Of a stretch of DNA of 37,835 nucleotides, positions 2,743 through 37,833 are shown piece after piece. The stretch comes from an uncultured Clostridia bacterium (GTDB taxonomy: Bacteria > Bacillota > Clostridia > Christensenellales > Borkfalkiaceae). Made by a program: the position numbers and the translations under genes. The notes below the pieces were generated by a model. That model saw only the letters and a program-made list of their open reading frames with translations. It ran no database searches and was not told where the DNA came from. The stretch lies in the NCBI GenBank assembly GCA_947629515.1, contig CANRDY010000012.1:1-37835 (forward strand). The letters run 5' to 3'. The number at the start of each line of letters is the position of its first letter. Within the stretch, counting starts at the first letter, position 1.

Positions 2743-2930
2743 GGGGATATATTTGAAAATTTGTGTTAGTTTTTGGGGAATGATAAATGAAGTGATAAAT
2801 AATGAGCGATAAATAAACGGGCGGGGTTGTTAAAGCAATTGCGGGGAGTTAATAATGTGCTTATTACGATTTATTAAAGTGCGCTTATTAAAGCGCGCGG
2901 TTTTTATTTCAGCCGCGAGGTTTTTTTATT
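2743..2930. other. AT-rich spacer with short repeats
   Basis: No gene. Short near-repeats (GATAAAT at several positions, TTATTAAAGTGCGCTTATTAAAGCGCGC) and a CGCGG/CCGCG hairpin at about 2898-2921 followed by a T-rich run on the plus strand. No clear flippase promoter was found. Confidence 0.5.
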
Positions 2931-3788
2931 TTAGCCGCCGAGCGATTTTAAATATCTTTTGAGGGCGTCGCGCCAATCGGGGAGCGGCTCGAACCCGTTT
3001 GCGACTATCCCGCTTCTGTCGAGACGGCTGTTGAAAGGGCGTTTTGCCTTTGAAAGCCCGTACTCTTCGGTCGTCACTTTTACGACGCGGGTCTTGATCC
3101 CCGCAAGCGCGTAAATTTCCCTTGTGAAGTCGTACCAGCTTATGTACCCGCCCTCGTTGGTGACGTGGTACACGCCGTATTTTTGCGTGACTATCATGTC
3201 GGCTATAAGGCGGGCGAGGTCGGGGGTGTACGTGGGCGTGCCGATCTGGTCGCCGACCACCCGCACTTCCTCGCGGGTCTTTGCCGCGTTCAGCATTGTC
3301 TTTACAAAGTTTTTGCCGTTCAAGCCGAATACCCACGCCGTTCTTATAATAAAGAACTCTTTGAGATTTTCCCTTACGGCAAGCTCTCCCTCGTACTTGG
3401 TCTGCCCGTAGTAGTTGATGGGCGAGGGCGTGCTTTCGCACGTCCACGGTTCGACGCCGTCGCCGCCGAACACGTAATCGGTGGAGATATAGACCATCTT
3501 TGCGCCGTATTCCGCGCAGAGCTTTGCTATGTTCTCTGTGCCCGTCGCGTTCACGGCGCGCACTTTTTGTCTGTTCTCCCGCTCTTCTGCGGCGTCGACC
3601 GCCGTCCACGCGGCGCAGTGCACGACCGCTTGGGGGCGGAATTTGGAAAAAGCGGCTTTGACCGAGCTTTTGTCGGTTATATCCATTTCTTCGATATCCA
3701 CGCCCGCGACCTCGTGACCGCGGCTTGTAAGCTCTTTCACCACGTCAAATCCGAGCTGGCCTTTTACACCCGTTACAAGAATTTTCAC
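2931..3788 (-). CDS. rfbD: dTDP-4-dehydrorhamnose reductase
   Basis: 285 residues, normal length for RfbD/RmlD, which uses NAD(P)H to reduce dTDP-4-keto-L-rhamnose to dTDP-L-rhamnose, the last step of the pathway. Extended SDR fold: Rossmann motif GVKGQLG at residues 7-13, STDYVFGG with YYGQTKYEGE (catalytic Tyr-x3-Lys) in the middle, and RTAWVFG. The start is GTG at 3788, preceded by an AAGGGG Shine-Dalgarno six bases upstream that belongs to the last copy of the 39-bp tandem repeat. The GTG overlaps the stop (TGA) of a 47-codon repeat ORF in a GTGA arrangement. Last of the four rfb genes in transcription order. Confidence 0.95.
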   Translation of the reverse strand: MKILVTGVKGQLGFDVVKELTSRGHEVAGVDIEEMDITDKSSVKAAFSKFRPQAVVHCAAWTAVDAAEERENRQKVRAVNATGTENIAKLCAEYGAKMVYISTDYVFGGDGVEPWTCESTPSPINYYGQTKYEGELAVRENLKEFFIIRTAWVFGLNGKNFVKTMLNAAKTREEVRVVGDQIGTPTYTPDLARLIADMIVTQKYGVYHVTNEGGYISWYDFTREIYALAGIKTRVVKVTTEEYGLSKAKRPFNSRLDRSGIVANGFEPLPDWRDALKRYLKSLGG

Positions 3789-23041: not shown

Positions 23042-23279
23042 GAGCGCATTATGGCACTGTCATTTCGAGGGATATGACACGCGCCGTAGGCGCGGGATTG
23101 ACCGAGAGAATCCCAACGGGGTCTGTGCTTGTACTTTGAAACCGACCCCCACTTTTCTGAAATAATTACTCCGCTATACTGCGGAATAGACCCGTTCGAC
23201 GCGCTTCGCTTGCTCAGTGTGACAGTTATTATTAGAAGCGCACCCACTCAGTCCGCGGAGCGAATTTTTTAATTCTTCC
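23042..23279. repeat. Intergenic repeat cluster C
   Basis: No gene. It holds one copy of repeat B (23052-23150: GGCACTGTCATTTCGAGGGA, then GCGCCGTAGGCGCGGGATTG and CCGAGAGAATCCC), also at 29763-29861 and inverted at about 31127-31250. One copy of repeat C (23169-23232: CTCCGCTATACTGCGGAATA, then GACCCGTTCGACGCGCTTCG) also occurs at 30134-30197 and inverted at 31044-31103. Confidence 0.85.
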
Positions 23280-25932: not shown

Positions 25933-25981
25933 GTGAGTGCAAAGAAAGTTGCAAAAAAATGTTCTGCACGGAGGTGGAGTT

Positions 25982-28900
25982 ATGTCGAAATTCCGTAAAT
26001 TACTGCTCGTTTCACTTATATCCGTATGCGCCTTTATGCTGGGCGCGCTGGTTTTTTCGGCGTGCACGGAGCACGTCCACGCCTTTGGAGAATGGCAGAC
26101 TGAGACCGCCGCGACCTGCTCGCAGGAGGGCAAGGAAGTGCGCCGCTGCGAGTGCGGGCAGACCGAGACCCGCCCCACCGCCAAAAAAGAGCACACTCCC
26201 GACCAGACCGCGTGGCAGACGGTGACCGCCGCGACCTGCTCGCAAAAGGGCTTGGAGAGCAGCGTGTGCACGCTGTGCCGCGCGCCCGTCACGCGCGAGA
26301 CTGAAATGCTCCCCCACTCCTACGGGGAATGGCGCGAGACCAAAGCCCCCACCTGTTCGGCTGCGGGACTTAAAGAACACGACTGCACGGTGTGCGGTCA
26401 CGGCGAGAGCGAAGAGATACAAAAGCTCCCCCACACCCCCGTAGTTATGGTGGCGAAAGCTCCCACCTGCACGGAGGCGGGATATACCGCGGGCGAAAAG
26501 TGCGGGGTATGCGGGGCGACCGTTTCGGGAATGGAAGCAATACCCCCGACGGGGCATAGCTACGGCGATTGGCAGGAAGTTGCAAAGGCGACCTGCACAT
26601 CCAAAGGCGTTGAACAGCGCGAGTGCGCAAAGTGCTTTAACACCGAAGAGCGCGAGACGGCTATGACCCCCCACTCGCTCGAGACGGTACAGGGCGAACA
26701 GCCCACGTGCACAGAGCCCGGTCACTCCGACGGCAAGCGTTGTACCGTGTGCGAACAGATGATAGTCGAACAAAAAGTCCTGCCCGCCCTCGGTCACAAG
26801 ATGAGCGAATATACCCATCAGGAAGATACCTCGATGGGGCATTACCACACGTCCAACTGCATAAGGTGCATGGCTGTAGAGGTGCGCGCGGAGTGCAACT
26901 TCAACACGGTCGAAACGCCCGCTACCTGCCTTACGCCCCTCCACCACACGCACACATGCACGACTTGTAATTATTTTTATGAACACGACGAGGGCGAGGC
27001 TTTGGGTCATTCGTGGCTCGAACCCGTGTTCTATAAGTTCGACGAAAACAAAGTTCCCATGCACATTCAAAGGTGCGCGAGGGCTGACGGCGACGAAGAA
27101 CACGAAGCTATAATCGAAAACTGCACGCAAGTGCTTACCACCTATCAGCCCGACTGCAAGAACGCGGGATACACCCGCCATGAGTGCGAAAAGTGCAACC
27201 TTTGGTATTCGGGCGAAAAAGTGCCCGCGCTGGGACACGATTTTACGCCCTATGTTCAGGAAGCGGGGGCGCGCGGGACTTACACGCACACGCACAGATG
27301 CCAAAACGACGGGTGCGGACTTGTGGAGACAAAGGAGTGCATATTCCTTTTGAGTCAAACGGTCGACCCCACCTGCACTACGCAGGGCTATACCGACCGC
27401 ACGTGCGTGGTCTGCCGCAACACCGCGCGCACGAATATTAAGGAAAAGTTAGGTCATATAACCGAGAGCTGGGAACACTTTGAAGATGACGGGCAGTCGT
27501 ACCACCGCTCGCAGTGTCTGAGAAAGGACTGCGGCGAGACGGTCGTGGGCGAGTGCAACTTTGTGGACGCCTCCGTCGCGCCCACCTGCGGAGTTGCGGG
27601 GCACGATCTGGAAATTTGCGAAGTTTGCCTTTACAACAAGGACAACGGCGTTATAGAAGCCCTTGTGCACGCGTTCAGCCCGTGGACGCCCGACGGCTTC
27701 CACAAACAGCATGTGCACACCTGTTCGAACTGCGGGCTGGAGGAAAGGGTCGACCACCCTTACGACGTTGCAACGGTAGAGGCGACCTGCATTTCGGAAG
27801 GTTCAAAAACATACACCTGCGACGAGTGCGGCGATACCTATACCGACATATACCTCAACCCCCTCGGACATTCCTTTGAGAACATGGACCCTTCGCTATG
27901 GAATATAAACCCCCAACAGCACGCCGCAACGTGCGTGAGGTGCGAAAACCATGTTGAACTTGCCCATAACTTTACAGAGAGCAATATTTGCGCTGACTGC
28001 GGCTTCGACGGGCTGTACTACGCCTACGGCGACGAAAGCAGAACGTGGGCTACCGTGCGCGAACCCGACGCCAACGACAAGGACGAAAACGGCATTGCCT
28101 ACCCGACCGACAGCGTTAACAACTCCAAAAGGCTGCTTATTGCGGCGAGCTGGAACTCCGTTCCCGTTACGCAGATAGGCAAAAACGCCTTCTTTGCGAG
28201 CGCGATCGAGACCTTAGCCGTGCGCGAGGTGGTTCTCCCCTACTGCGTCGAAAGCATCGAAAACTTCGCGTTCGACCACTGTATTTATCTTGAGAGCGTG
28301 TCGATAGCCGACGACCCGCAGGCGGCGATACTCACCTATGAAAAGCCCGCCGCGCTCCGCAGTATAGGCGAGTACGCATTTCAGAATTGCTCTGCGCTGA
28401 CTACGGCGCATCTGCCCGACAGCCTTATAAGTATAGGCAGAAGCGCATTTATTAACTGCACGAGCCTTAACGACATCTCCATACCCGAAAGCGTTACCCA
28501 GATTGGCGGGTCGGCGTTCCAAAATACCGCGTTCATAAATAACCCCGCAAAGTGGACGGCGGGCGCGCTGTACATTAACAAACACCTGATAAAGGTCGAC
28601 AGCGGCACGATAGCCGAGGACTACGAGATTTGGGATAAAACGCTTACGGTGAGCGAAAACGCGTTTGAAAACTGCACTGCGCTCAAACGGCTTACCATTC
28701 CCGCCTCGGTAACGGTGTTCGACAACGACGCGTTCAAGGGGTGCACTTCCCTTTCGACGGTCGTCTATAACGGAACTGCGGAGCAGTTTTTGGCAATTAA
28801 GTTCGGCAACGACCTGGCAAGCCCCATGCACTACGCAAGCAGTATAACCATTGCGGGCGCGGTGGGCGACATGCAGATAGGCGAGGGCGTGACCGCCATT

Positions 28901-29479
28901 CCCGCAGGTGCGTTCAGGGGATCGCAGATATCCTCGATAATCATTCCCGAGAGCGTGACCTCGATAGGCGCGAACGCGTTTTACGGGTGCGAAAGTCTTA
29001 CGCATATCGAAGTGCTCGGCAAGATCGTGCGGTTGGGCGCGGACGCGTTCACGGGCACGGGATATTATAACGATCTCGAAAATTGGACGAACGGGCTTTT
29101 GTATATAGGCGATATGCTGATCGCCGCCGACAGACAGCAGACGGGCGACGAAATCGACATACGCGAGGGCGTGACGGCTATCGCCCCCGGCGTGTTCAAA
29201 AACTTCGCCACGCTCAAAAAGGTCAACCTGCCCGCAAGCCTTATGTTCATAGGGAGCGAGGCGTTCTCGGGCGCGTTCGAAGTTACCACCTCTCCCTCGG
29301 GAGCGAGGGTCGTAAATGCCGAAGTTACCTTTAACGGTTCAAACGGGTATTGGTTCGCCTCTAATCTGAACGGCATGGGCAGAGTGTTGATGGACGAAAA
29401 GTTCGCCTCGAACAAGTCTATCAACGCGAGCGAGCTGATGACCTATAACGGCGAATGGCGCAGAACCGTGAAAAATTGA
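25982..29479 (+). CDS. Cys-rich repeat and BspA-type LRR surface lipoprotein
   Basis: 1165 residues from the ATG at 25982 (GGAGG upstream; an earlier in-frame ATG at 25937 lies on the -10/+1 region and is rejected). Residues 1-28 are a lipoprotein signal ending LVFSAC, so Cys28 should be lipidated. Residues ~30-680 hold about 13 repeats of ~45 residues with the pattern ATC-x2-G, C-x2-C, LGH and W, each with paired cysteines (CTVCGHG, CGVCGA, CEKCN, CDECGDT) that could bind a metal or form disulfides. Residues ~720-1100 are BspA-type leucine-rich repeats (SIGEYAFQNCSALTTAHLPD, IPESVTSIGANAFYGCESL). Such proteins are surface adhesins or recognition proteins in gut bacteria. It is monocistronic on the plus strand. 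Ligand unknown. Confidence 0.9.
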   Translation: MSKFRKLLLVSLISVCAFMLGALVFSACTEHVHAFGEWQTETAATCSQEGKEVRRCECGQTETRPTAKKEHTPDQTAWQTVTAATCSQKGLESSVCTLCRAPVTRETEMLPHSYGEWRETKAPTCSAAGLKEHDCTVCGHGESEEIQKLPHTPVVMVAKAPTCTEAGYTAGEKCGVCGATVSGMEAIPPTGHSYGDWQEVAKATCTSKGVEQRECAKCFNTEERETAMTPHSLETVQGEQPTCTEPGHSDGKRCTVCEQMIVEQKVLPALGHKMSEYTHQEDTSMGHYHTSNCIRCMAVEVRAECNFNTVETPATCLTPLHHTHTCTTCNYFYEHDEGEALGHSWLEPVFYKFDENKVPMHIQRCARADGDEEHEAIIENCTQVLTTYQPDCKNAGYTRHECEKCNLWYSGEKVPALGHDFTPYVQEAGARGTYTHTHRCQNDGCGLVETKECIFLLSQTVDPTCTTQGYTDRTCVVCRNTARTNIKEKLGHITESWEHFEDDGQSYHRSQCLRKDCGETVVGECNFVDASVAPTCGVAGHDLEICEVCLYNKDNGVIEALVHAFSPWTPDGFHKQHVHTCSNCGLEERVDHPYDVATVEATCISEGSKTYTCDECGDTYTDIYLNPLGHSFENMDPSLWNINPQQHAATCVRCENHVELAHNFTESNICADCGFDGLYYAYGDESRTWATVREPDANDKDENGIAYPTDSVNNSKRLLIAASWNSVPVTQIGKNAFFASAIETLAVREVVLPYCVESIENFAFDHCIYLESVSIADDPQAAILTYEKPAALRSIGEYAFQNCSALTTAHLPDSLISIGRSAFINCTSLNDISIPESVTQIGGSAFQNTAFINNPAKWTAGALYINKHLIKVDSGTIAEDYEIWDKTLTVSENAFENCTALKRLTIPASVTVFDNDAFKGCTSLSTVVYNGTAEQFLAIKFGNDLASPMHYASSITIAGAVGDMQIGEGVTAIPAGAFRGSQISSIIIPESVTSIGANAFYGCESLTHIEVLGKIVRLGADAFTGTGYYNDLENWTNGLLYIGDMLIAADRQQTGDEIDIREGVTAIAPGVFKNFATLKKVNLPASLMFIGSEAFSGAFEVTTSPSGARVVNAEVTFNGSNGYWFASNLNGMGRVLMDEKFASNKSINASELMTYNGEWRRTVKN

Positions 29480-29608
29480 GGCGGCGAGAGCGGTTATTTG
29501 GTTATGAGGTTATAAGGTGATGAGGCGCGGATTATTTATAGTTGATTGTATATAGTCGATCATATGGTGATGATTGTATATAGTTGATTGTGTAGTGCCG
29601 ATTGTATA
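29480..29608. repeat. Short direct repeats downstream of the lipoprotein
   Basis: AT-rich stretch with imperfect copies of TATATAGTTGATTGTATATAG and GGTGATGA-type words. No gene or promoter recognised. Confidence 0.5.
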
Positions 29609-29612
29609 AAAA

Positions 29613-29645
29613 GTGCGCGCGGGCGTTTGAAAACGCCCGCGCGTT
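29613..29645 (+). terminator. Terminator-like palindrome after the lipoprotein
   Basis: CGCGCGGGCGTTT / AAACGCCCGCGCG around a GA centre, then TTTAATG on the plus strand. It shares the GGGCGTT..AACGCCC core with other palindromes in the window and is the first good hairpin after the gene, 135 bp past the stop. Confidence 0.6.
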
Positions 29646-30262
29646 TAATGTTGAACAGCCTGCGCGCTTGTCGCCCTCAACGCCGTTAAGACGCTTGGTC
29701 AAGCGGAACGCTTGCGCGGCGGGCGTTGAAAACGCCCGCCGCGCATATTATCGGAGCAACTTATGGCACTGTCATTTCGAGGGATATGACACGCGCCGTA
29801 GGCGCGGGATTGACCGAGAGAATCCCCACGTGGTCTGCTCGGGGCACTTTGAAACCAACACCCAATTCCAAATATTATCGTATCGCATTATTCGCGTGGG
29901 CGGGTGAACCCCCACCTTTCATTCCTCCCCCTTGTAATTACCCCCTTCCTCATTCCCTCCCCTTTTTCAAGGGTCGAGTGCGGACTTCTCAAAACAGCGG
30001 ATACCCGCTGTTTTGCCGCACGAGGTGAGCGAGCGCATATGCACGCGCGTGCGATGCCCGAGGCGGTTGTTGTCCTTACAACCGACGAGAAAGGTAGGGT
30101 AGGGGTTTTTCTATAATATCCACCTTATAAAAACTCCGCTATACTGCGGAATAGACCCGTTCGACGCGCTTCGCTTGCTCAGGGTGACAGTTATTATTAA
30201 AATAGCGCGGGCGGCAAAAAGCCGCCCGCCGCTTAATACTGAGTTTTGAGCTATTGATTTTT
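29646..30262. repeat. Intergenic repeat cluster D
   Basis: No gene. In order: repeat A (29648-29716), a GCGGCGGGCGTTGAAAACGCCCGCCGC palindrome split as GCGGCGGGCGTT / AACGCCCGCCGC (about 29717-29744), repeat B (29763-29861), a pyrimidine-rich stretch (29910-29970), repeat C (30134-30197) and a GCGGGCGGCAAAAAGCCGCCCGC hairpin with arms GCGGGCGGC / GCCGCCCGC (30206-30228). Confidence 0.8.
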
Positions 30263-30337
30263 AAAATAAAAGACCGAGGCGGCTTTCGCAGGCCTCGGGT
30301 TGATACGCACGCGCGTTTGCGTATCTGCCTAAATAGC
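30263..30337 (-). ncRNA. Small RNA 5 of the tandem array
   Basis: Predicted transcript of about 75 nt, starting near 30337 under its own promoter (30344-30372). Two stem-loops: GATACGCA / TGCGTATC (30318-30325 with 30302-30309) and a terminator CCGAGGC / GCCTCGG-type stem (about 30274-30298) with U-rich tail TCTTTTATTTT (30263-30273). It does not share the sequence core of units 1, 3 and 4. No ribosome-binding site with a useful ORF. Confidence 0.75.
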
Positions 30338-30343
30338 ATTTAT

Positions 30344-30372
30344 ATTATATGCAATACGCAAAGATTTGTCAA
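30344..30372 (-). promoter_or_regulatory. Promoter of small RNA 5
   Basis: TTGACA (30367-30372), 17-nt spacer, TATAAT (30344-30349): full consensus. The -35 begins nine bases past the U-run of unit 4. Confidence 0.9.
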
Positions 30373-30380
30373 TAGTTTTT

Positions 30381-30481
30381 AAAAAAGGAATAAGAGAGGG
30401 GCTGCCGAAACTTAATTCGTATATCGCCTACATCACAACCCGTTAAGGGTCTGACACCACGCTTGCGCGCTTTCCTCTCTT
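30381..30481 (-). ncRNA. Small RNA 4 of the tandem array
   Basis: About 101 nt, starting near 30481. The 5' end AAGAGAGG (30474-30481) pairs with CCTCTCTT (30392-30399), followed by ATTCCTTTTTT, so the closing stem of the whole RNA is also its terminator stem. Inside: a GCGC-GCAA-GCGU hairpin with a GNRA-type loop, a GACCC-UUAAC-GGGUU hairpin followed by GUGAUGU, and a CGAA / UUCG hairpin. About 90% identical to unit 3. Confidence 0.8.
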
Positions 30482-30487
30482 GTTTAT

Positions 30488-30516
30488 AGTATACGCATTA
30501 AATTGGAATTTGTCAA
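30488..30516 (-). promoter_or_regulatory. Promoter of small RNA 4
   Basis: TTGACA (30511-30516), 17-nt spacer, TATACT (30488-30493). The -35 begins nine bases past the U-run of unit 3. Confidence 0.9.
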
Positions 30517-30525
30517 CGGTTTTTT

Positions 30526-30628
30526 AAAAAAAGAAATAAGAGAGGGGCGAACCGAAACTTAATTCGTATATAGCCCACATCACGACCCGTTAATGGTCTG
30601 ACACCACGCTTGCGCGCTTTCCTCTCTT
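30526..30628 (-). ncRNA. Small RNA 3 of the tandem array
   Basis: About 103 nt, starting near 30628. Closing stem AAGAGAGG (30621-30628) / CCTCTCTT (30538-30545), then ATTTCTTTTTTT. Same internal hairpins as unit 4; the second reads GACC-AUUAACG-GGUC, so a G-U pair of unit 4 is G-C here. Substitutions between the two copies leave all proposed stems largely intact. Confidence 0.8.
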
Positions 30629-30634
30629 GTTTAT

Positions 30635-30663
30635 AGTATACGCATTAAAATAGATTTTGTCAA
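30635..30663 (-). promoter_or_regulatory. Promoter of small RNA 3
   Basis: TTGACA (30658-30663), 17-nt spacer, TATACT (30635-30640). Confidence 0.9.
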
Positions 30664-30672
30664 CAGTTTTTT

Positions 30673-30741
30673 AAAAAAGAACCGCTTTAGGTTTTTCCTA
30701 GGCGAAAAGAAAAAAAGATAAATCTTTTATTTACTTTAAGT
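30673..30741 (-). ncRNA. Small RNA 2 of the tandem array
   Basis: About 69 nt, starting near 30741. AU-rich 5' half with an AAAAGAU-UU-AUCUUUU hairpin, then a terminator CGCCTAGG-AAAAA-CCTAAAGCG (30682-30704) and TTCTTTTTT. No sequence likeness to units 1, 3, 4; shared only in promoter, size and layout. An early stop at the first U-rich hairpin would leave an RNA of only ~35 nt. Confidence 0.7.
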
Positions 30742-30747
30742 ACCTAT

Positions 30748-30776
30748 ATTATATGCAATAAATCCCATATTGTCAA
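30748..30776 (-). promoter_or_regulatory. Promoter of small RNA 2
   Basis: TTGACA (30771-30776), 17-nt spacer, TATAAT (30748-30753): full consensus. Confidence 0.9.
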
Positions 30777-30799
30777 GGGGTTTTAAAAAATTGAAGCAC

Positions 30800-30870
30800 A
30801 AAAAAAGTAACGGGTGCCAAACACTACAAAGAGCATCAGCCCGGACCCCTTAACGGGATCGCCGTTACCG
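30800..30870 (-). ncRNA. Small RNA 1 of the tandem array
   Basis: About 71 nt, first in transcription order, starting near 30870. The 5' end GTAACGG (30862-30868) pairs with CCGTTAC (30807-30813), directly followed by seven U (30800-30806): the same end-to-end closing terminator stem as units 3 and 4. The internal hairpin GAUCCC-GUUAA-GGGGUC followed closely by CUGAUGC matches the GACCC-UUAAC-GGGUU..GUGAUGU element of units 3/4 although the closing stems are unrelated in sequence. Confidence 0.78.
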
Positions 30871-30876
30871 ACAAAG

Positions 30877-30905
30877 ATAATAACACTCCCTTTTAAGATT
30901 GTCAA
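30877..30905 (-). promoter_or_regulatory. Promoter of small RNA 1
   Basis: TTGACA (30900-30905), 17-nt spacer, TATTAT (30877-30882). Confidence 0.88.
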
Positions 30906-31568
30906 GCAAAATTTTATACTGTGAAATAGATTTCTCGGCAAGCTCGAAATGACAGTTATTAAAAATACGTCTGCGCCCGCGCGGCGTAATGTTTGCGCGC
31001 GGGCGCGGCTGCCAACAGCCGTGCCCGCGCGCTTTCTGATAATAAACTGTCACCCTGAGCAAGCGAAGCGCGTCGAACGGGTCTATTCCGCAGTATTGCG
31101 GAGTTTTTATAAGGTATATATTATGTGGAAGTGATAACGCGTTTCAAAGGACAAGCACGGACCACGGGGGGATTCTCTCACTTAATCGCCCGCGCATTAA
31201 TGCGCGGGTCTCATAGCGTTCGAAATGACAGTGCCATAATGCGCTCCGTTATTATTTAAAACGCGGCGGGGCGCAAACGCGCCCCGCCGCCTTGCGTTGA
31301 ACAGCCTAAACGCTCGACTATCTCAACGCTGTTAAGACGCTTGGTCAAGCGGAACGCTTGCGAAGCATATACGAAGTTTGCGGTAGTAAAGCGGCGGGCG
31401 CGCGACTAAAATCGCGCGCCCGCCGCTTTCCGTTGATAAGCCTATACGCTTGTCATACTTTTCCGTAGTTAAGAATCCCGTCCGCGGCGACACGCCGCTT
31501 TACCATTCGCTCTTGTTATTAAAATTGCCTGTGCGGAAGGTTCGCTACCCTTGCGGTTCACACAAATT
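30906..31568. repeat. Intergenic repeat cluster E
   Basis: No gene. It holds the near copy of the DUF6933-gene terminator (30994-31031), repeat C inverted (31044-31103), repeat B inverted and diverged (about 31127-31250), repeat A (31296-31361), a GGCGGGCGCGCGA / TCGCGCGCCCGCC hairpin (about 31392-31425) and the AAGAATCCCGTCCGCGGCG piece (about 31470) shared with cluster A. Confidence 0.8.
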
Positions 31569-32499: not shown

Positions 32500-34527
32500 T
32501 CAATTTGAAATTGTAATTTTTTTAGTTAGTTCATCTGCTGTTTCACGTGACTTTTCCAATGCGGAAAGTTCAGAAGTCAATTGATCCCTATTAAACTTTA
32601 GCTTATCTAACATGAAACCATGTCGCAAGTCAAAGCTTTTGAAAACATCATCCCAAGTCAGAGCGTAAATCTCAAAATTCTCTAAGCATCGGACAAGTCC
32701 AATCTTGCCTTTGCTTTCATGCTCTTTATAGTATGCTTTTACATCTTCATCAACTTCATTACATACCGCAATGAACTTCCATCTTCTTTGAATACTATTA
32801 AACTGTGGTTGCCTGCGAATGAATCGCATATAGTCCTCAATTTGGCGCAAAACTTTAACAGACAACGGCACTTTCGGTGCCTTAAGCTCAACGATTATGT
32901 TCTCTTCTAAAGCATTTTCAAATGAGTCTTCACCTCTGCTCGCTCCGCAAAGAAAAATATCCATTCTCCGATTTTGCTCTTCGTCGGGAGCTAATGACTC
33001 TTGGGGTTTATGTGCCCCATATAAAATATTCAAATACCCCTCTAAGGCTTTTTGCATAGGTACATCTGCACTTGCTAAAGCGTAGCGTTCTCCGAAAATC
33101 CAATAGTGTTGCTCTACTATGGTTTGGATATGATTTCTTTCAGTAGTGAAAACCGATAGATCATATACTAAATGCTTAAGTACCTCAATTACCTCATATC
33201 TGCTTTCTACAAAATGTATAGTGTCAATGATATGTTCTAATTTTGACTTTTGTAGTAAACCTGCCAAGCGTCTTCTTTGATCTGCGGACAAATTTACTAT
33301 TTGTTCTATGACCACTAAAATATTTTCCCGTTCTTCTGAACTGAGCAATAGATTTAGAAATGCCAATAGGGATTTTTCCTGCACCTCTTTCAATTTGTAA
33401 AAGATTCGTGGCTCAGTACAATAAATCTCCTTTGTTACACGCACCAAATCTGCTTTTCTCAATTTGCCATAAGCATCATCAGAGAAACGAGGAAAGGTCT
33501 TGCGCTCCTTAATCATCTTGTCGATCTCTTCATCGGCTTTTCCTGCCATATAAAGAGCGAGTTGGCTGCTTATCAAATCTTGTGTAAATTTTTTTAATTT
33601 CTTTAGTACCGAAAAATACTCCTCGCCCTGTCCGAACTGCACTTGAACGGGATCATCAGAAAGCGAATCGGCATCAAAGGTTTCTGTAAAAAATGCGGAT
33701 TTGATGAAGATGCTATGATTAAAATCAACAGTATTGCGATTAAAGGTAGTGGTATCAAGTCCGCGTAAAATATCGTTTGCGTTGAGATAATAACAACAAA
33801 ACTTTTCCGAGATCTTTTTTCTCCAAACGATGAGATTTATTTGAAAGGAATAACTTTCAATTGCATATACTTCGGTTTTACTTAACTCATTATTAATCAA
33901 CTTTGAGTAATCAATTTCTGCACCATTAAGAATTAATTTTAAGTGCTTTTCTTTGTGAAGATACAGAAACCATGCAAATTCAGTCAAAAAATACTCTTCC
34001 AGATTTTCATGACTTAAATCGCATGGATGAAGATTACTAATATTACTAAGGGTGACAACCGTTCCCGTACTTGTTGCAGTAGTATCCTCCTCAGGTTCTG
34101 TGTATGCTAAATTTTGCTTATCAAGGTCATGCAAAACAATTCTATATTGACGGATAATATTTTCGCATTTATATCTTGTTATCCATTCTGCTTGAGTGGC
34201 AAATAAACAAAATGAAAATCGCCCTTTCCCTTTATTGGCTTTTGTTTTGGGCTTAAGAGAAAAACTATTTTTCTTAGAGACCAAAAAAGCTCCAAAAGTA
34301 TCTTCTAACTCGTCGAAATTTATTCCATCTCCATTATCGCTAATCGTGATAGATTCAATCCCTTCTTGTGTGGCATTGGGGATAAACGAAACCTTGACCT
34401 CGGTAGCATTTGCCTCAAAACTATTCCAAATATATTCGCAAATAGCCTCTTTATAGTCTTTAGTCAAACCTGAAGTTTCAACGCTCTGATTCTTCACGCT
34501 TAACTCCATAGTTTTCATGTCTGCCAT
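32500..34527 (-). CDS. GHKL ATPase fused to Shedu-like (DUF4263) nuclease
   Basis: 675 residues. Residues ~15-110 hold GHKL (Hsp90/MutL/MORC-type) ATP-binding motifs: EYIWNSFEANA with the Mg-binding Asn (31-41), SDNGDGI (63-69) and NKGKGRFS (98-105). A transducer-like middle follows (to ~460). Residues ~465-590 look like a PD-(D/E)XK nuclease of the Shedu/DUF4263 kind: QTIVEQHYWIFGERYAL (468-484), Asp523 in RRMDIFL, and IIVELKAP with Glu547 and Lys549, then Gln561. The last ~80 residues include an Asp/Arg-rich coiled segment. MutL/MORC-like ATPases beside restriction systems are described by comparative genomics; an ATP-gated nuclease working with the MjaI-like enzyme is inference. It starts 47 bp after the endonuclease gene in an AT-rich operon of unusual base use. 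Confidence 0.82.
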   Translation of the reverse strand: MADMKTMELSVKNQSVETSGLTKDYKEAICEYIWNSFEANATEVKVSFIPNATQEGIESITISDNGDGINFDELEDTFGAFLVSKKNSFSLKPKTKANKGKGRFSFCLFATQAEWITRYKCENIIRQYRIVLHDLDKQNLAYTEPEEDTTATSTGTVVTLSNISNLHPCDLSHENLEEYFLTEFAWFLYLHKEKHLKLILNGAEIDYSKLINNELSKTEVYAIESYSFQINLIVWRKKISEKFCCYYLNANDILRGLDTTTFNRNTVDFNHSIFIKSAFFTETFDADSLSDDPVQVQFGQGEEYFSVLKKLKKFTQDLISSQLALYMAGKADEEIDKMIKERKTFPRFSDDAYGKLRKADLVRVTKEIYCTEPRIFYKLKEVQEKSLLAFLNLLLSSEERENILVVIEQIVNLSADQRRRLAGLLQKSKLEHIIDTIHFVESRYEVIEVLKHLVYDLSVFTTERNHIQTIVEQHYWIFGERYALASADVPMQKALEGYLNILYGAHKPQESLAPDEEQNRRMDIFLCGASRGEDSFENALEENIIVELKAPKVPLSVKVLRQIEDYMRFIRRQPQFNSIQRRWKFIAVCNEVDEDVKAYYKEHESKGKIGLVRCLENFEIYALTWDDVFKSFDLRHGFMLDKLKFNRDQLTSELSALEKSRETADELTKKITISN

Positions 34528-34574
34528 ATTATGTCACCTCGAATTAAATGCAAATAAAGATTTTTCACGACTGT

Positions 34575-35207
34575 CTAATTACTTAAACGATCAATTTCTT
34601 CTTTAATTTCGTCAATCACTTCGGTATTTACGATGATTTTCTTGTCGCCCGACTTACAGGAGAACAGATAAAATACTTTTCCGCCATATTGTTGCGTAAA
34701 CTTTATATGGGTGGAATGTTGAATCCCGCGCTCTTTGTAAATTTCGGGAATACTCGATGCTTGCGATAAGGGTTTAATTTGCAGACCAATGAATTTCTCG
34801 TTGATTTCAATATAGAAATCAACATTGAACAATCGGTCCCATTCATCGGGCGCAGGCTTTATGGGAACTTGCAAGATTTCTTGCAATTGCTCATAAATCG
34901 TTTTGATTTCACGTACATAGCCGTCATATGTACGGTCAATAACCAACTCTTTAATGAAGTTAATGCAATCTTCTTCCGTTACCTCTTCTATTTCGGCAAC
35001 CAAGACCTCCGTGATTTTTACATACAACTTTTTCCCTAATTCAACAATATGTTCTTCAGAACGAACATTCTCAAAGTAATACGTTTGCCATTCCTCAAGC
35101 GATTTCGGCGCACATTTTCTAATCGCTTCGGACGTTGCACCTACGTTTCGCTTAAAGTTAAGTTGAAACCTGTTTGTCGCGCTGTTTAAGATCCATTCCT
35201 TAGCCAT
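34575..35207 (-). CDS. MjaI-like type II restriction endonuclease
   Basis: 210 residues from the ATG at 35207 (GAGG nine bases upstream); the ORF also has an ATG at 35213, too near that site. AKEWILNSATNRFQLNFKRN, PKSLEEWQTYYFENV and ELGKKLYVKITEV resemble the MjaI family (RE_MjaI), whose prototype cuts CTAG. NVDFYIEINEKFIGLQIKP fits a PD-(D/E)XK core with Asp, then Gln-x-Lys in place of Glu-x-Lys. The gene overlaps the methyltransferase by a few codons, as expected for a coupled pair. CTAG specificity is an inference from family resemblance; I am fairly sure it is a type II endonuclease. Confidence 0.8.
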   Translation of the reverse strand: MAKEWILNSATNRFQLNFKRNVGATSEAIRKCAPKSLEEWQTYYFENVRSEEHIVELGKKLYVKITEVLVAEIEEVTEEDCINFIKELVIDRTYDGYVREIKTIYEQLQEILQVPIKPAPDEWDRLFNVDFYIEINEKFIGLQIKPLSQASSIPEIYKERGIQHSTHIKFTQQYGGKVFYLFSCKSGDKKIIVNTEVIDEIKEEIDRLSN

Positions 35208-36471
35208 TTGCATATACCTCTATAAATTTCTTCTTATATTTGTACTCGATTGACGTATCAACTTCTACATACCTTGTGCGTATCAAATGAGCGTTCACAA
35301 AAGTGCGGTTATCAAGATACAAATAGCAAAGCAAGTTTCCGTCCCCATCGTACTTGGTAGAATCAAATTTCAAATAGACCTTTTTCTTTCTGAATTTGTC
35401 TTGCAAAAATTCTATCGCTTTTGCAGACTCAAAAGGATTAGTCTTTACACCGAGTAATTTGACTTTAAGTCCTGATGAAAGCAAAATATCTTCGGGGGAT
35501 AAGACCTCTTTCACCCCAAACAATTCTTCTTTTTGTGTACGCTTTGCATCTATCCTTGAACCGAATTGAAGCGACTTAACGTCGATTTTCTTATCCATTT
35601 TATGCGGGTCGTGAAAGATGTAGGGTAACTCCTCGAATGAAAAAAAAGGAGTGACTTCATCTCTGACTGTCGAAACCTCATTTTGTCGTGTAAACAAATC
35701 GCCGCTTAGTTTATCTTGAATGACAGGGATGAACGCTTCGTTGATTTCATAAGCGATAGAATTTCTACCCAAATGCAGTGCGGCTAAAGATGTCGTTCCG
35801 CTCCCTGCAAATGGATCGAGGACAGTCTCTCCATAAAACGAAAACATCTTAATGAGCCGCTTCGGTAGTTCTTCAGGGAACATTGCGATATGCTCCAACT
35901 GCTTTACACCGTTGAAATTCCAATGTGAGGAGAAGTATTGTGTCCATTCCTCATTTGTCAGAATGGATTTTTGTTTTTGTTCAACTGTAACTTTCGGCGG
36001 CGTTCCGAGTTTCTTAAAAATAAGAATAAACTCGTAGTCCATTTTCAAAATGCCATTCCGAGGATAGGGAAAACTTCCCATGACGGCTCCGCCGCCGGTA
36101 GTGTTCATGGTGGTAGTTTTTTGCCAAATAATTGCGCCCATGTAGTCCATTCCTAAGGCTTCGCAACATCTGATGATTTCCGTTCTTATGGGGATCACCT
36201 TATATCTTCCATAATAAACCGAGCGCGCGAACTGATCACCGATATTGATACATAAGCGGCAACCATCGGAAAGTACGCGGTAGCATTCTCGCCACACCAA
36301 ATTGAGGTTGTTTATGTACTCCTCATAGCTGTCGTTAAAGCCGATTTGATTTGCCGTCCCATAATCTTTTAATTGCCAATAGGGCGGCGAAGTGATAATC
36401 AACTGTACCGATTTATCTTTAATTTGTTTCAGAGAGCGGCTATCGCCCAAAACGATTTTATGATGTGTCAT
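35200..36471 (-). CDS. N4-cytosine-type DNA methyltransferase with SNase-like tail
   Basis: 423 residues. Catalytic motif TSPPYW (27-32) comes before the SAM-binding motif DPFAGSGTT (219-227), the beta-class order; SPPYW is typical of N4-cytosine methyltransferases. Further family features are SYEEYINNLNLVWRECYRVL, GAIIWQKTT and FPEELPKRLIKMFS. Residues ~320-423 resemble a staphylococcal-nuclease (SNase) fold: VKLLGVKTNPFESAKAIEFL, KKKVYLKFDSTKYD, NLLCYLYLDNRTFVNAHLI. The SNase catalytic Arg/Asp/Glu are not in place (VKTNP instead of VDTPE), so it is probably inactive and binds DNA or protein. First gene of the restriction-modification operon, under a consensus promoter. Confidence 0.9.
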   Translation of the reverse strand: MTHHKIVLGDSRSLKQIKDKSVQLIITSPPYWQLKDYGTANQIGFNDSYEEYINNLNLVWRECYRVLSDGCRLCINIGDQFARSVYYGRYKVIPIRTEIIRCCEALGMDYMGAIIWQKTTTMNTTGGGAVMGSFPYPRNGILKMDYEFILIFKKLGTPPKVTVEQKQKSILTNEEWTQYFSSHWNFNGVKQLEHIAMFPEELPKRLIKMFSFYGETVLDPFAGSGTTSLAALHLGRNSIAYEINEAFIPVIQDKLSGDLFTRQNEVSTVRDEVTPFFSFEELPYIFHDPHKMDKKIDVKSLQFGSRIDAKRTQKEELFGVKEVLSPEDILLSSGLKVKLLGVKTNPFESAKAIEFLQDKFRKKKVYLKFDSTKYDGDGNLLCYLYLDNRTFVNAHLIRTRYVEVDTSIEYKYKKKFIEVYANG

Positions 36472-37758: not shown

Positions 37759-37833
37759 TGGTGACCCGTGCGGGAATCGAACCCACGATACCACCGTGAA
37801 AGGGTGATGTCTTAACCTCTTGACCAACGGGCC
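37759..37833 (-). tRNA. tRNA-Glu (UUC)
   Basis: Complete cloverleaf on the minus strand, 75 nt with encoded CCA. Acceptor stem GGCCCGT / ACGGGTC (one G-U), D-arm with GGTCAAGAGGTTAAGAC, anticodon stem TCACC / GGTGG around loop CTTTCAC (anticodon UUC), T-arm CGTGGGTTCGATTCCCGCG-like with GTTCGAT. Its 3' end faces the restriction-modification island and forms the right copy of the flanking direct repeat. Confidence 0.95.

What the first reader, a model, noticed from the sequence alone, without database searches (positions are those of the whole stretch)
30263..30905. Array of five tandem small RNA genes, each with a consensus promoter and terminator
Seen directly: on the minus strand five promoters follow one another (-35 TTGACA exact in all five; spacers exactly 17 nt in all five; -10 TATTAT, TATAAT, TATACT, TATACT, TATAAT). 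Each is followed by 69-103 nt of hairpin-forming sequence ending in a stem and U-run, and the next -35 begins about ten bases later. No ORF with a ribosome-binding site is present. Such a packed run of near-optimal promoters should make these RNAs very abundant. I do not recognise them as any known structured RNA (not tRNA, 6S, SRP, tmRNA, RNase P, CRISPR or a riboswitch). A multi-RNA regulatory or antisense locus, perhaps with exchangeable units, is inference.
Basis: partly seen in the sequence, partly recalled or inferred. Interest (0 to 1): 0.88.

Follow-up and report, generated by a model that had tools for sequence, protein, structure and literature searches.

The report
Orphaned prophage small-RNA gene array
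Five strong small-RNA genes in a genome related to gut Clostridia belong to RNA families that, in relatives, often sit inside filamentous-phage-like prophages, tail to tail with small toxin-like protein genes, so the array looks like a set of left-over or captured RNA antidotes.

Summary
In detail: five TTGACA-N17-TATAAT-type promoters on the minus strand each precede a 69-103-nt RNA ending in a U-run, with no plausible ORF. Rfam has no match.

The five RNAs fall into four families, all found in other genomes. The RNA1 and RNA5 families have covariation-supported structures. RNA3/RNA4 and RNA2 have relatives in other genomes.

The families are linked to inovirus-like prophages: 28 of 70 RNA sites have a Zot-like gene within 8 kb, and all 41 RNA units there lie opposite zot. 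In a genus-wide test, 23 of 24 matches to small-protein families P5/P7 and P6 have a convergent promoter-RNA-U-run unit at their 3' end, against 6 of 279 other ORFs. Low-confidence models of P5 and P7 match MazF/Kid toxins best.

The window's genome shows none of these proteins. The array is best read as an orphan collection of prophage RNA partners, probably RNA antitoxins able to act in trans. Origin is well supported; toxin neutralisation is inferred. 'Exchangeable units' is supported; 'host regulatory locus' is not needed.

The parts
30877..30905 (-). promoter of RNA1: TTGACA-N17-TATTAT
30800..30870 (-). RNA1 (family A), about 71 nt: closing stem GTAACGG/CCCGTTAC, variable hairpin, conserved GGGCTGATGC...GTTTGGCAC stretch, U-run
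   Evidence: fold; member of CM R1 by construction (94.4 bits); 16 family sequences with covariation
30748..30776 (-). promoter of RNA2: TTGACA-N17-TATAAT (12 of 12)
30673..30741 (-). RNA2 (family 2), about 69 nt, A/U-rich with a 3' hairpin and U-run
   Evidence: relatives L099:5440 (found by blastn, then a seed of the profile) and L165:6404, about 0.4 kb from a Zot frame, E 1e-4
30635..30663 (-). promoter of RNA3: TTGACA-N17-TATACT
30526..30628 (-). RNA3 (family E with an extra GCGC-GCAA-GCGT hairpin), about 103 nt; 5'-3' stem AAGAGAGG/CCTCTCTT stands before the U-run; carries an ACGAATTAAGTTTCGG hairpin
   Evidence: matches the E profile made without it, nhmmer E 7e-6
30488..30516 (-). promoter of RNA4: TTGACA-N17-TATACT
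30381..30481 (-). RNA4 (family E), about 101 nt, duplicate of RNA3
   Evidence: E profile made without it, E 4e-5
30344..30372 (-). promoter of RNA5: TTGACA-N17-TATAAT (12 of 12)
30263..30337 (-). RNA5 (family B), about 75 nt: three hairpins with an AACCC linker; the third followed by a U-rich tail
   Evidence: member of CM R2 by construction (90.1 bits); 47 aligned units with covariation
30113..30209 (.). 97-nt repeat flanking the array (inverted copy at 31028-31124)
   Evidence: a third copy at 23162-23234 and a match in G000:C14 (L002); no other genome's locus in the listing
31028..31124 (.). second copy of the 97-nt flanking repeat, inverted

Best explanation
The array is a set of five RNA genes whose families belong to inovirus-like (filamentous-phage-like) prophages of gut Clostridia. 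In those prophages each RNA is made from its own strong promoter and lies tail to tail with the gene of a small basic protein. Two of the protein groups (P5, P7) are probably MazF/PemK-fold toxin-like proteins; a third (P6) is of unknown fold. The most likely mechanism is that the folded RNA keeps its partner protein harmless, as RNA antitoxins do in type III toxin-antitoxin modules, possibly helped by antisense pairing over the 3' end of the protein's mRNA. In the window no protein gene is left and five RNAs of four families are packed together, each with a near-consensus promoter, so the cell would hold a standing stock of RNA antidotes that can act in trans against filamentous phages or prophages bearing the matching proteins. 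SHOWN: promoters, structures, families, prophage linkage, strand rule, tail-to-tail pairing, no detectable copy of the proteins in this genome. INFERRED: MazF-like activity, neutralisation by RNA, protective role of the orphan array.
Confidence: 0.5

Rival explanations
1. Cis-antisense regulators. In the prophages each RNA is an antisense RNA to the 3' end of the neighbouring mRNA (as in convergent type I toxin-antitoxin pairs or phage operon control); the window array is a decaying relic with no present function.
For: Tail-to-tail geometry: in 22 of the 23 positive loci an RNA 3' end lies between 25 nt inside and 23 nt outside the stop codon. Overlapping convergent toxin and antitoxin genes are described for three characterised C. 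difficile type I modules, several of which sit in prophages (PMC6563280 passages). One family (K) lies convergent with a short hydrophobic-peptide frame in bajarodino virus 12. RNAs at Zot sites are always opposite to zot.
Against: RNA1 and RNA5 family structures are kept by compensatory changes across many genomes, orphan sites included. In the window all five promoters are intact although no target gene remains, which a dead relic would not keep. P5/P6/P7 are basic proteins of roughly 105-215 aa, not hydrophobic peptides.
Confidence: 0.25
2. Host trans-acting regulatory sRNAs in a multi-gene cluster, as the first reader suggested (like Listeria LhrC1-5), targeting host mRNAs.
For: Several separately transcribed sRNAs; single-stranded AACCC linker in RNA5; 35 of 70 sites have neither Zot nor P5/P6/P7 in the DNA held, 20 of them on loci of 6.4 kb or more; 14 of 43 loci scanned have a tRNA gene (no control).
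Against: Sporadic presence (15 and 47 of 301 genomes), prophage linkage, strand rule and protein pairing. 15 of the 35 orphan sites are on loci under 4.1 kb, where absence is weak; at least two loci counted as orphan still have remnants of P7 or P6 beside an RNA (L051 by its copy L071, and L048).
Confidence: 0.17
3. The units act as single-stranded DNA signals of the filamentous phage (complementary-strand origin or packaging hairpins) rather than as RNAs.
For: The RNA strand is opposite to the zot strand in 41 of 41 units, so transcripts would be copied from the presumed virion strand; inoviruses use promoter-like hairpins there (recalled).
Against: Near-consensus promoters, mostly with 17-nt spacers, and U-runs; up to six units of several kinds at one site (L051); the RNA strand folds clearly better than its complement for RNA1, RNA3 and RNA4 (about equal for RNA5, worse for RNA2); units kept without phage genes in the window.
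Confidence: 0.06

Closest known systems
Type III toxin-antitoxin modules (ToxIN, CptIN, TenpIN)
   Same: protein toxin held by a structured RNA; ToxN-type toxins share the MazF/Kid fold (recalled), the best structural match of P5/P7
   Different: here the RNA gene is convergent and downstream, usually single rather than tandem repeats upstream (PMC4627078 passages), the P5/P7 sequences hit no known family at threshold, and the window has RNAs without toxins
Convergent prophage-borne type I toxin-antitoxin pairs (for example CD0956.2-RCd10; txpA-RatA)
   Same: RNA gene convergent with a toxin gene in prophages or prophage-like elements of Firmicutes (PMC6563280 passages; convergence of txpA-RatA recalled)
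   Different: partner is a larger basic protein; RNAs form covarying families and exist as orphan arrays
LhrC1-5 of Listeria (multi-copy sRNAs)
   Same: several separately transcribed sRNA genes of related type (the name seen only in search listings; detail recalled)
   Different: four unlike families in one array, prophage link, no host target known
svsR, a prophage sRNA limiting phage infection (PMC12803456; start of abstract seen)
   Same: prophage-encoded sRNA with a role against other phages
   Different: single sRNA of a lambdoid E. coli prophage; no protein partner in what I saw
Inoviridae / bajarodino virus 12 (PQ006185.1)
   Same: Zot-like protein 46% identical over 98%, further shared proteins, an RNA unit (family K) opposite to zot
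   Different: no RNA of the window's four families found in it

Membership tests
Type III toxin-antitoxin | toxin of the ToxN/MazF-like fold | tested here: inconclusive
   P5 and P7 models match MazF/Kid best but with low confidence; no sequence match
Type III toxin-antitoxin | RNA antitoxin encoded upstream of the toxin as tandem repeats | tested here: not met
   RNA is convergent at the toxin-like gene's 3' end; units mostly single (two direct repeats seen only in the unit at L049:5967)
Type III toxin-antitoxin | RNA neutralises the protein by binding | not testable with these tools
   needs co-expression and pull-down
Type I toxin-antitoxin | small hydrophobic toxic peptide | tested here: not met
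   P5/P6/P7 are basic proteins of roughly 105-215 aa; no peptide ORF of note in the window array
Type I toxin-antitoxin | convergent overlapping antisense RNA | tested here: met
   in relatives, 23 of 24 convergent; in the window no partner gene was found, so not met there
Inoviridae-like prophage | Zot/pI-type ATPase near the RNAs | tested here: met
   for 28 of 70 RNA sites; NOT met in the window itself
Rfam families (tRNA, 6S, SRP, riboswitches, CRISPR repeats and others) | score at or above the curated threshold | tested here: not met
   only a tRNA at 37762-37833 in the window; best sub-threshold match in 29900-31300 is 26.3 bits against 50
LhrC-like multi-copy sRNA family | near-identical copies with shared pairing motif to host mRNAs | tested here: inconclusive
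   only RNA3/RNA4 are near-identical; targets not tested

The most novel reading that the evidence does not exclude
Filamentous prophages of gut Clostridia carry a new class of modular pairs, a MazF-fold (or P6) protein plus its own tail-to-tail structured RNA antitoxin, and bacteria collect the RNA halves alone in promoter-driven arrays that act as a heritable, exchangeable antidote library against incoming filamentous phages.
Probability: 0.3. Interest if true: 0.93.

Novelty: new variant of a known kind. Interest (0 to 1): 0.8.

Why it matters
At least four RNA families without an Rfam match, two of them with covariation-supported structures, are tied to a group of filamentous prophages in gut bacteria, and their pairing with small, possibly MazF-fold proteins is a directly testable candidate for a new toxin-antitoxin layout. 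If the orphan arrays protect cells, they would be an RNA counterpart of anti-addiction modules, with units swapped between arrays.

Tried and rejected
Known structured RNA: Rfam at the gathering threshold on the window and on 20 related loci, and at a permissive threshold on 29900-31300, gave no credible match but tRNAs; four further loci gave a tRNA and a sub-threshold molybdenum riboswitch match.

Small toxin ORF on either strand of the window array: none of note. Relic of Zot, P5/P7 or P6 in the window: no match at E<1. tblastn of 153 prophage-region ORFs against the window gave four weak or generic matches, the best (E 2e-10) to an XRE regulator. So the array is not visibly inside a prophage.

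Phage or plasmid carriage: two exact-pattern scans of viral contigs found nothing; A5 found no relative in viral contigs and A4 found 2 distant Zot relatives; plasmids had no Zot match. Neither CM found its family in ten viral records (three R2 rows at E 0.09-0.32 are chance level).

Family E covariance model: MAFFT alignments A6-A9 did not hold the closing stem in register, so no model was built; a sequence profile (A8) made without the window's RNAs was used instead. Relation of P6 to P5/P7: not detected; P6 against PDB sequences: nothing. Literature: the listings showed no report of such arrays; open-licence PMC texts only, and I read only passages of two papers.

Full report
CHECK OF THE OBSERVATION. 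On the minus strand of 30263-30905 there are five TTGACA-N17-TATNNT promoters at 11 or 12 of 12 consensus positions, each followed by 69-103 nt of RNA and a U-run. Shuffles of the region give 1.6 sites at the far weaker cut of 9 of 12. RNA1, RNA3 and RNA4 share a plan: the 5' and 3' ends pair, that closing stem stands directly before the U-run or a few nt from it, and inner hairpins lie between. RNA5 is three hairpins in a row. RNA2 is weakly folded. RNA3 and RNA4 are 94% identical over 127 nt. Rfam knows none of them. The strict terminator scan did not list the five 3' ends, so termination rests on folds plus U-runs.

FAMILIES. The array sequence has no second copy in its own genome; the one other match is a 52-nt promoter-containing stretch on contig 14. 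In 93 genomes of the genus, relatives of single units are found, in G061 on different contigs. Covariance models from 5 (RNA1, A2) and 4 (RNA5, A3) sequences, the window's own among them, hit 15 and 47 of 301 genomes of the family, and RNA5's model hits 8 of 297 in the order at E<=0.001, the window's genome included. On 47 RNA5-family units, 97.4% of cells pair and 15 of 20 pairs change on both sides; on 16 RNA1-family units, 95.8% and 12 of 23; no shuffle reaches either, and sliding the partner by 1-3 columns drops pairing to 26-45%. These alignments were fitted to the models, which leans towards the structure. Promoters are strong there too: 41 of 47 and 14 of 16 score 10 or more of 12 with the best spacer of 15-19; the spacer is 17 in 39 of 47 and 9 of 16. 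RNA3 and RNA4 match a profile of 'family E' that was made without them (E 7e-6 and 4e-5). RNA2 has relatives in L099 and L165.

ARRAYS WITH EXCHANGED UNITS. Promoter-RNA-U-run units were extracted from the DNA then held (196 distinct units; 149 sequences held, 8 duplicates of the window skipped) and clustered; 97 are singletons, so not all are members of a family. Mixed arrays exist elsewhere: RNA1+RNA5 families (L129), RNA2+RNA5 (L099), D+C+B (L102), a six-unit array with an RNA5 relative (L051), and others. 'Exchangeable units' is therefore observed. A pattern scan of named genomes hit 21 stretches, 15 of them titled Clostridia or Clostridiales, some naming deer, goat or sheep gut. 14 of the 21 carry an RNA5-family match by profile or model; the other 7, among them two Colidextribacter and one Anaerolineales hit, were not confirmed. 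The window's own taxon is not given; 'Clostridia' rests on these relatives.

PROPHAGE LINK. Neighbouring genes include a Zot-like ATPase (PF05707 above the cut-off in 4 of 4 such proteins scanned), replication-initiator-like proteins, a serine-recombinase-like gene (L148, L134; named from sequence, recalled) and shared unknown proteins. I then fetched 30 further Zot loci for their Zot gene: 24 with frames of 188-309 aa and 6 of about 390 aa. Units that I recognised as families defined earlier (C, J, E, 2, A) appear in 7 of 24, in 10 of 24 counting family K, which was defined on these loci, and in 0 of 6. Caveats: six of the seven then became profile seeds, so their E-values are by construction (RNA2 in L165 and RNA1 in L176 are not), and G008's contig was already known to hold an RNA1 hit. 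Overall 28 of 70 distinct RNA sites have a Zot match within 8 kb, and all 41 RNA units there lie on the strand opposite to zot. 35 of 70 have neither Zot nor the proteins below; 15 of these are on loci under 4.1 kb but 20 on loci of 6.4 kb or more, so copies outside recognisable prophages are common.

PROTEIN PAIRING. RNA units end at the 3' end of small basic protein genes on the other strand: RNA5 family with P5, family E with P6, families J and D with P7, RNA1 family with P6-like or P7 genes in some loci only. To test this, I searched profiles of P5+P7 (A14) and P6 (A15) in all 93 held genomes of the genus: 11 and 12 genomes match. Of the 24 matches, 23 have a convergent promoter-RNA-U-run unit at or near the stop codon (18 of 19 when the 5 profile seeds are left out), against 6 of 279 other ORFs of at least 150 aa with a ribosome-binding site in L129-L187 (the rule asks for promoter and U-run, not for a fold). 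The one miss (L208) is a weak match in a 405-codon frame; one positive (L218) rests on an uncertain frame; in one (L199) the RNA ends 164 nt away.

THE WINDOW'S COPY. No Zot, P5/P7 or P6 match lies in the window. The host genome (92.6% complete) has no P5/P7 or P6 match at E<=0.001, and its one Zot match is of the other, about 390-aa kind on another contig. Two 97-nt inverted repeats flank the array at 30113 and 31028; a third copy lies at 23162, so they are a genomic repeat and not proof of a mobile cassette.

MECHANISM. Best reading: in the prophage, RNA and protein form a toxin-antitoxin-like pair; the RNA fold (kept by compensatory change in two families) is what acts, perhaps with antisense help in cis; the window's array is an orphan, strongly promoted set of such RNAs that could still act in trans. 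Each step after 'pair' is inference. The main rival is antisense control of the neighbouring mRNA with the window copy as relic; its weak point is that all five promoters and four folds look intact without a target.

COMPARISON. It works most like type III modules (RNA holds a MazF-fold protein), but fails their gene order (RNA upstream in tandem repeats; passages of PMC4627078). It shares convergent layout and prophage setting with Clostridia type I modules (passages of PMC6563280) but not the hydrophobic peptide toxin. I therefore file it as a member of neither. Searches for prior reports (listings) showed none in the open-licence library.

Noticed in passing
L190 (PQ006185.1, bajarodino virus 12) 2913-3246: A 12-of-12 promoter RNA unit (family K) convergent with a short hydrophobic-peptide frame (MSIDYILLLLRL...) that has its own promoter-like sequence: looks like a type I toxin-antitoxin pair in an inovirus; family K also in L159, L167, L175 near Zot genes.
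   Followed up: partly
L049:5850-5967 (minus strand): An RNA unit made of two direct repeats (TATGATACGCACCTTAACGGGTAGCTCGATTAC), convergent with a P6 gene; resembles the repeat layout of type III antitoxins.
   Followed up: no
L044 (G013:C5) 3408-3572: RNA5 relative broken within its third hairpin by sequence beginning TGAAGTGAACCCC, perhaps a mobile-element end near the contig end.
   Followed up: no
window 32500-36471: GHKL-type ATPase-like ORF, a small ORF and a DNA methyltransferase-like ORF in a row on the minus strand, perhaps a restriction or defence island next to the array (named from sequence only).
   Followed up: no
window 23162-23234, 30113-30209, 31028-31124; L002: Dispersed 97-nt repeat of this genome, inverted around the array.
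   Followed up: partly
L051, L053, L061, L063-L065, L081, L083-L086, L088, L094, L098: tRNA genes lie in the locus of 14 of 43 RNA loci scanned, possibly integration hot spots; no control was made.
   Followed up: no
L046:5406-6450 and window 25937-30628: In G061 the single RNA3 relative lies beside a leucine-rich-repeat lipoprotein-like gene, and the window's array also neighbours a large repeat protein gene (25937-29479).
   Followed up: no
L175:4130-4259: Molybdenum/tungsten riboswitch match just under its Rfam threshold (33.7 against 36 bits).
   Followed up: no
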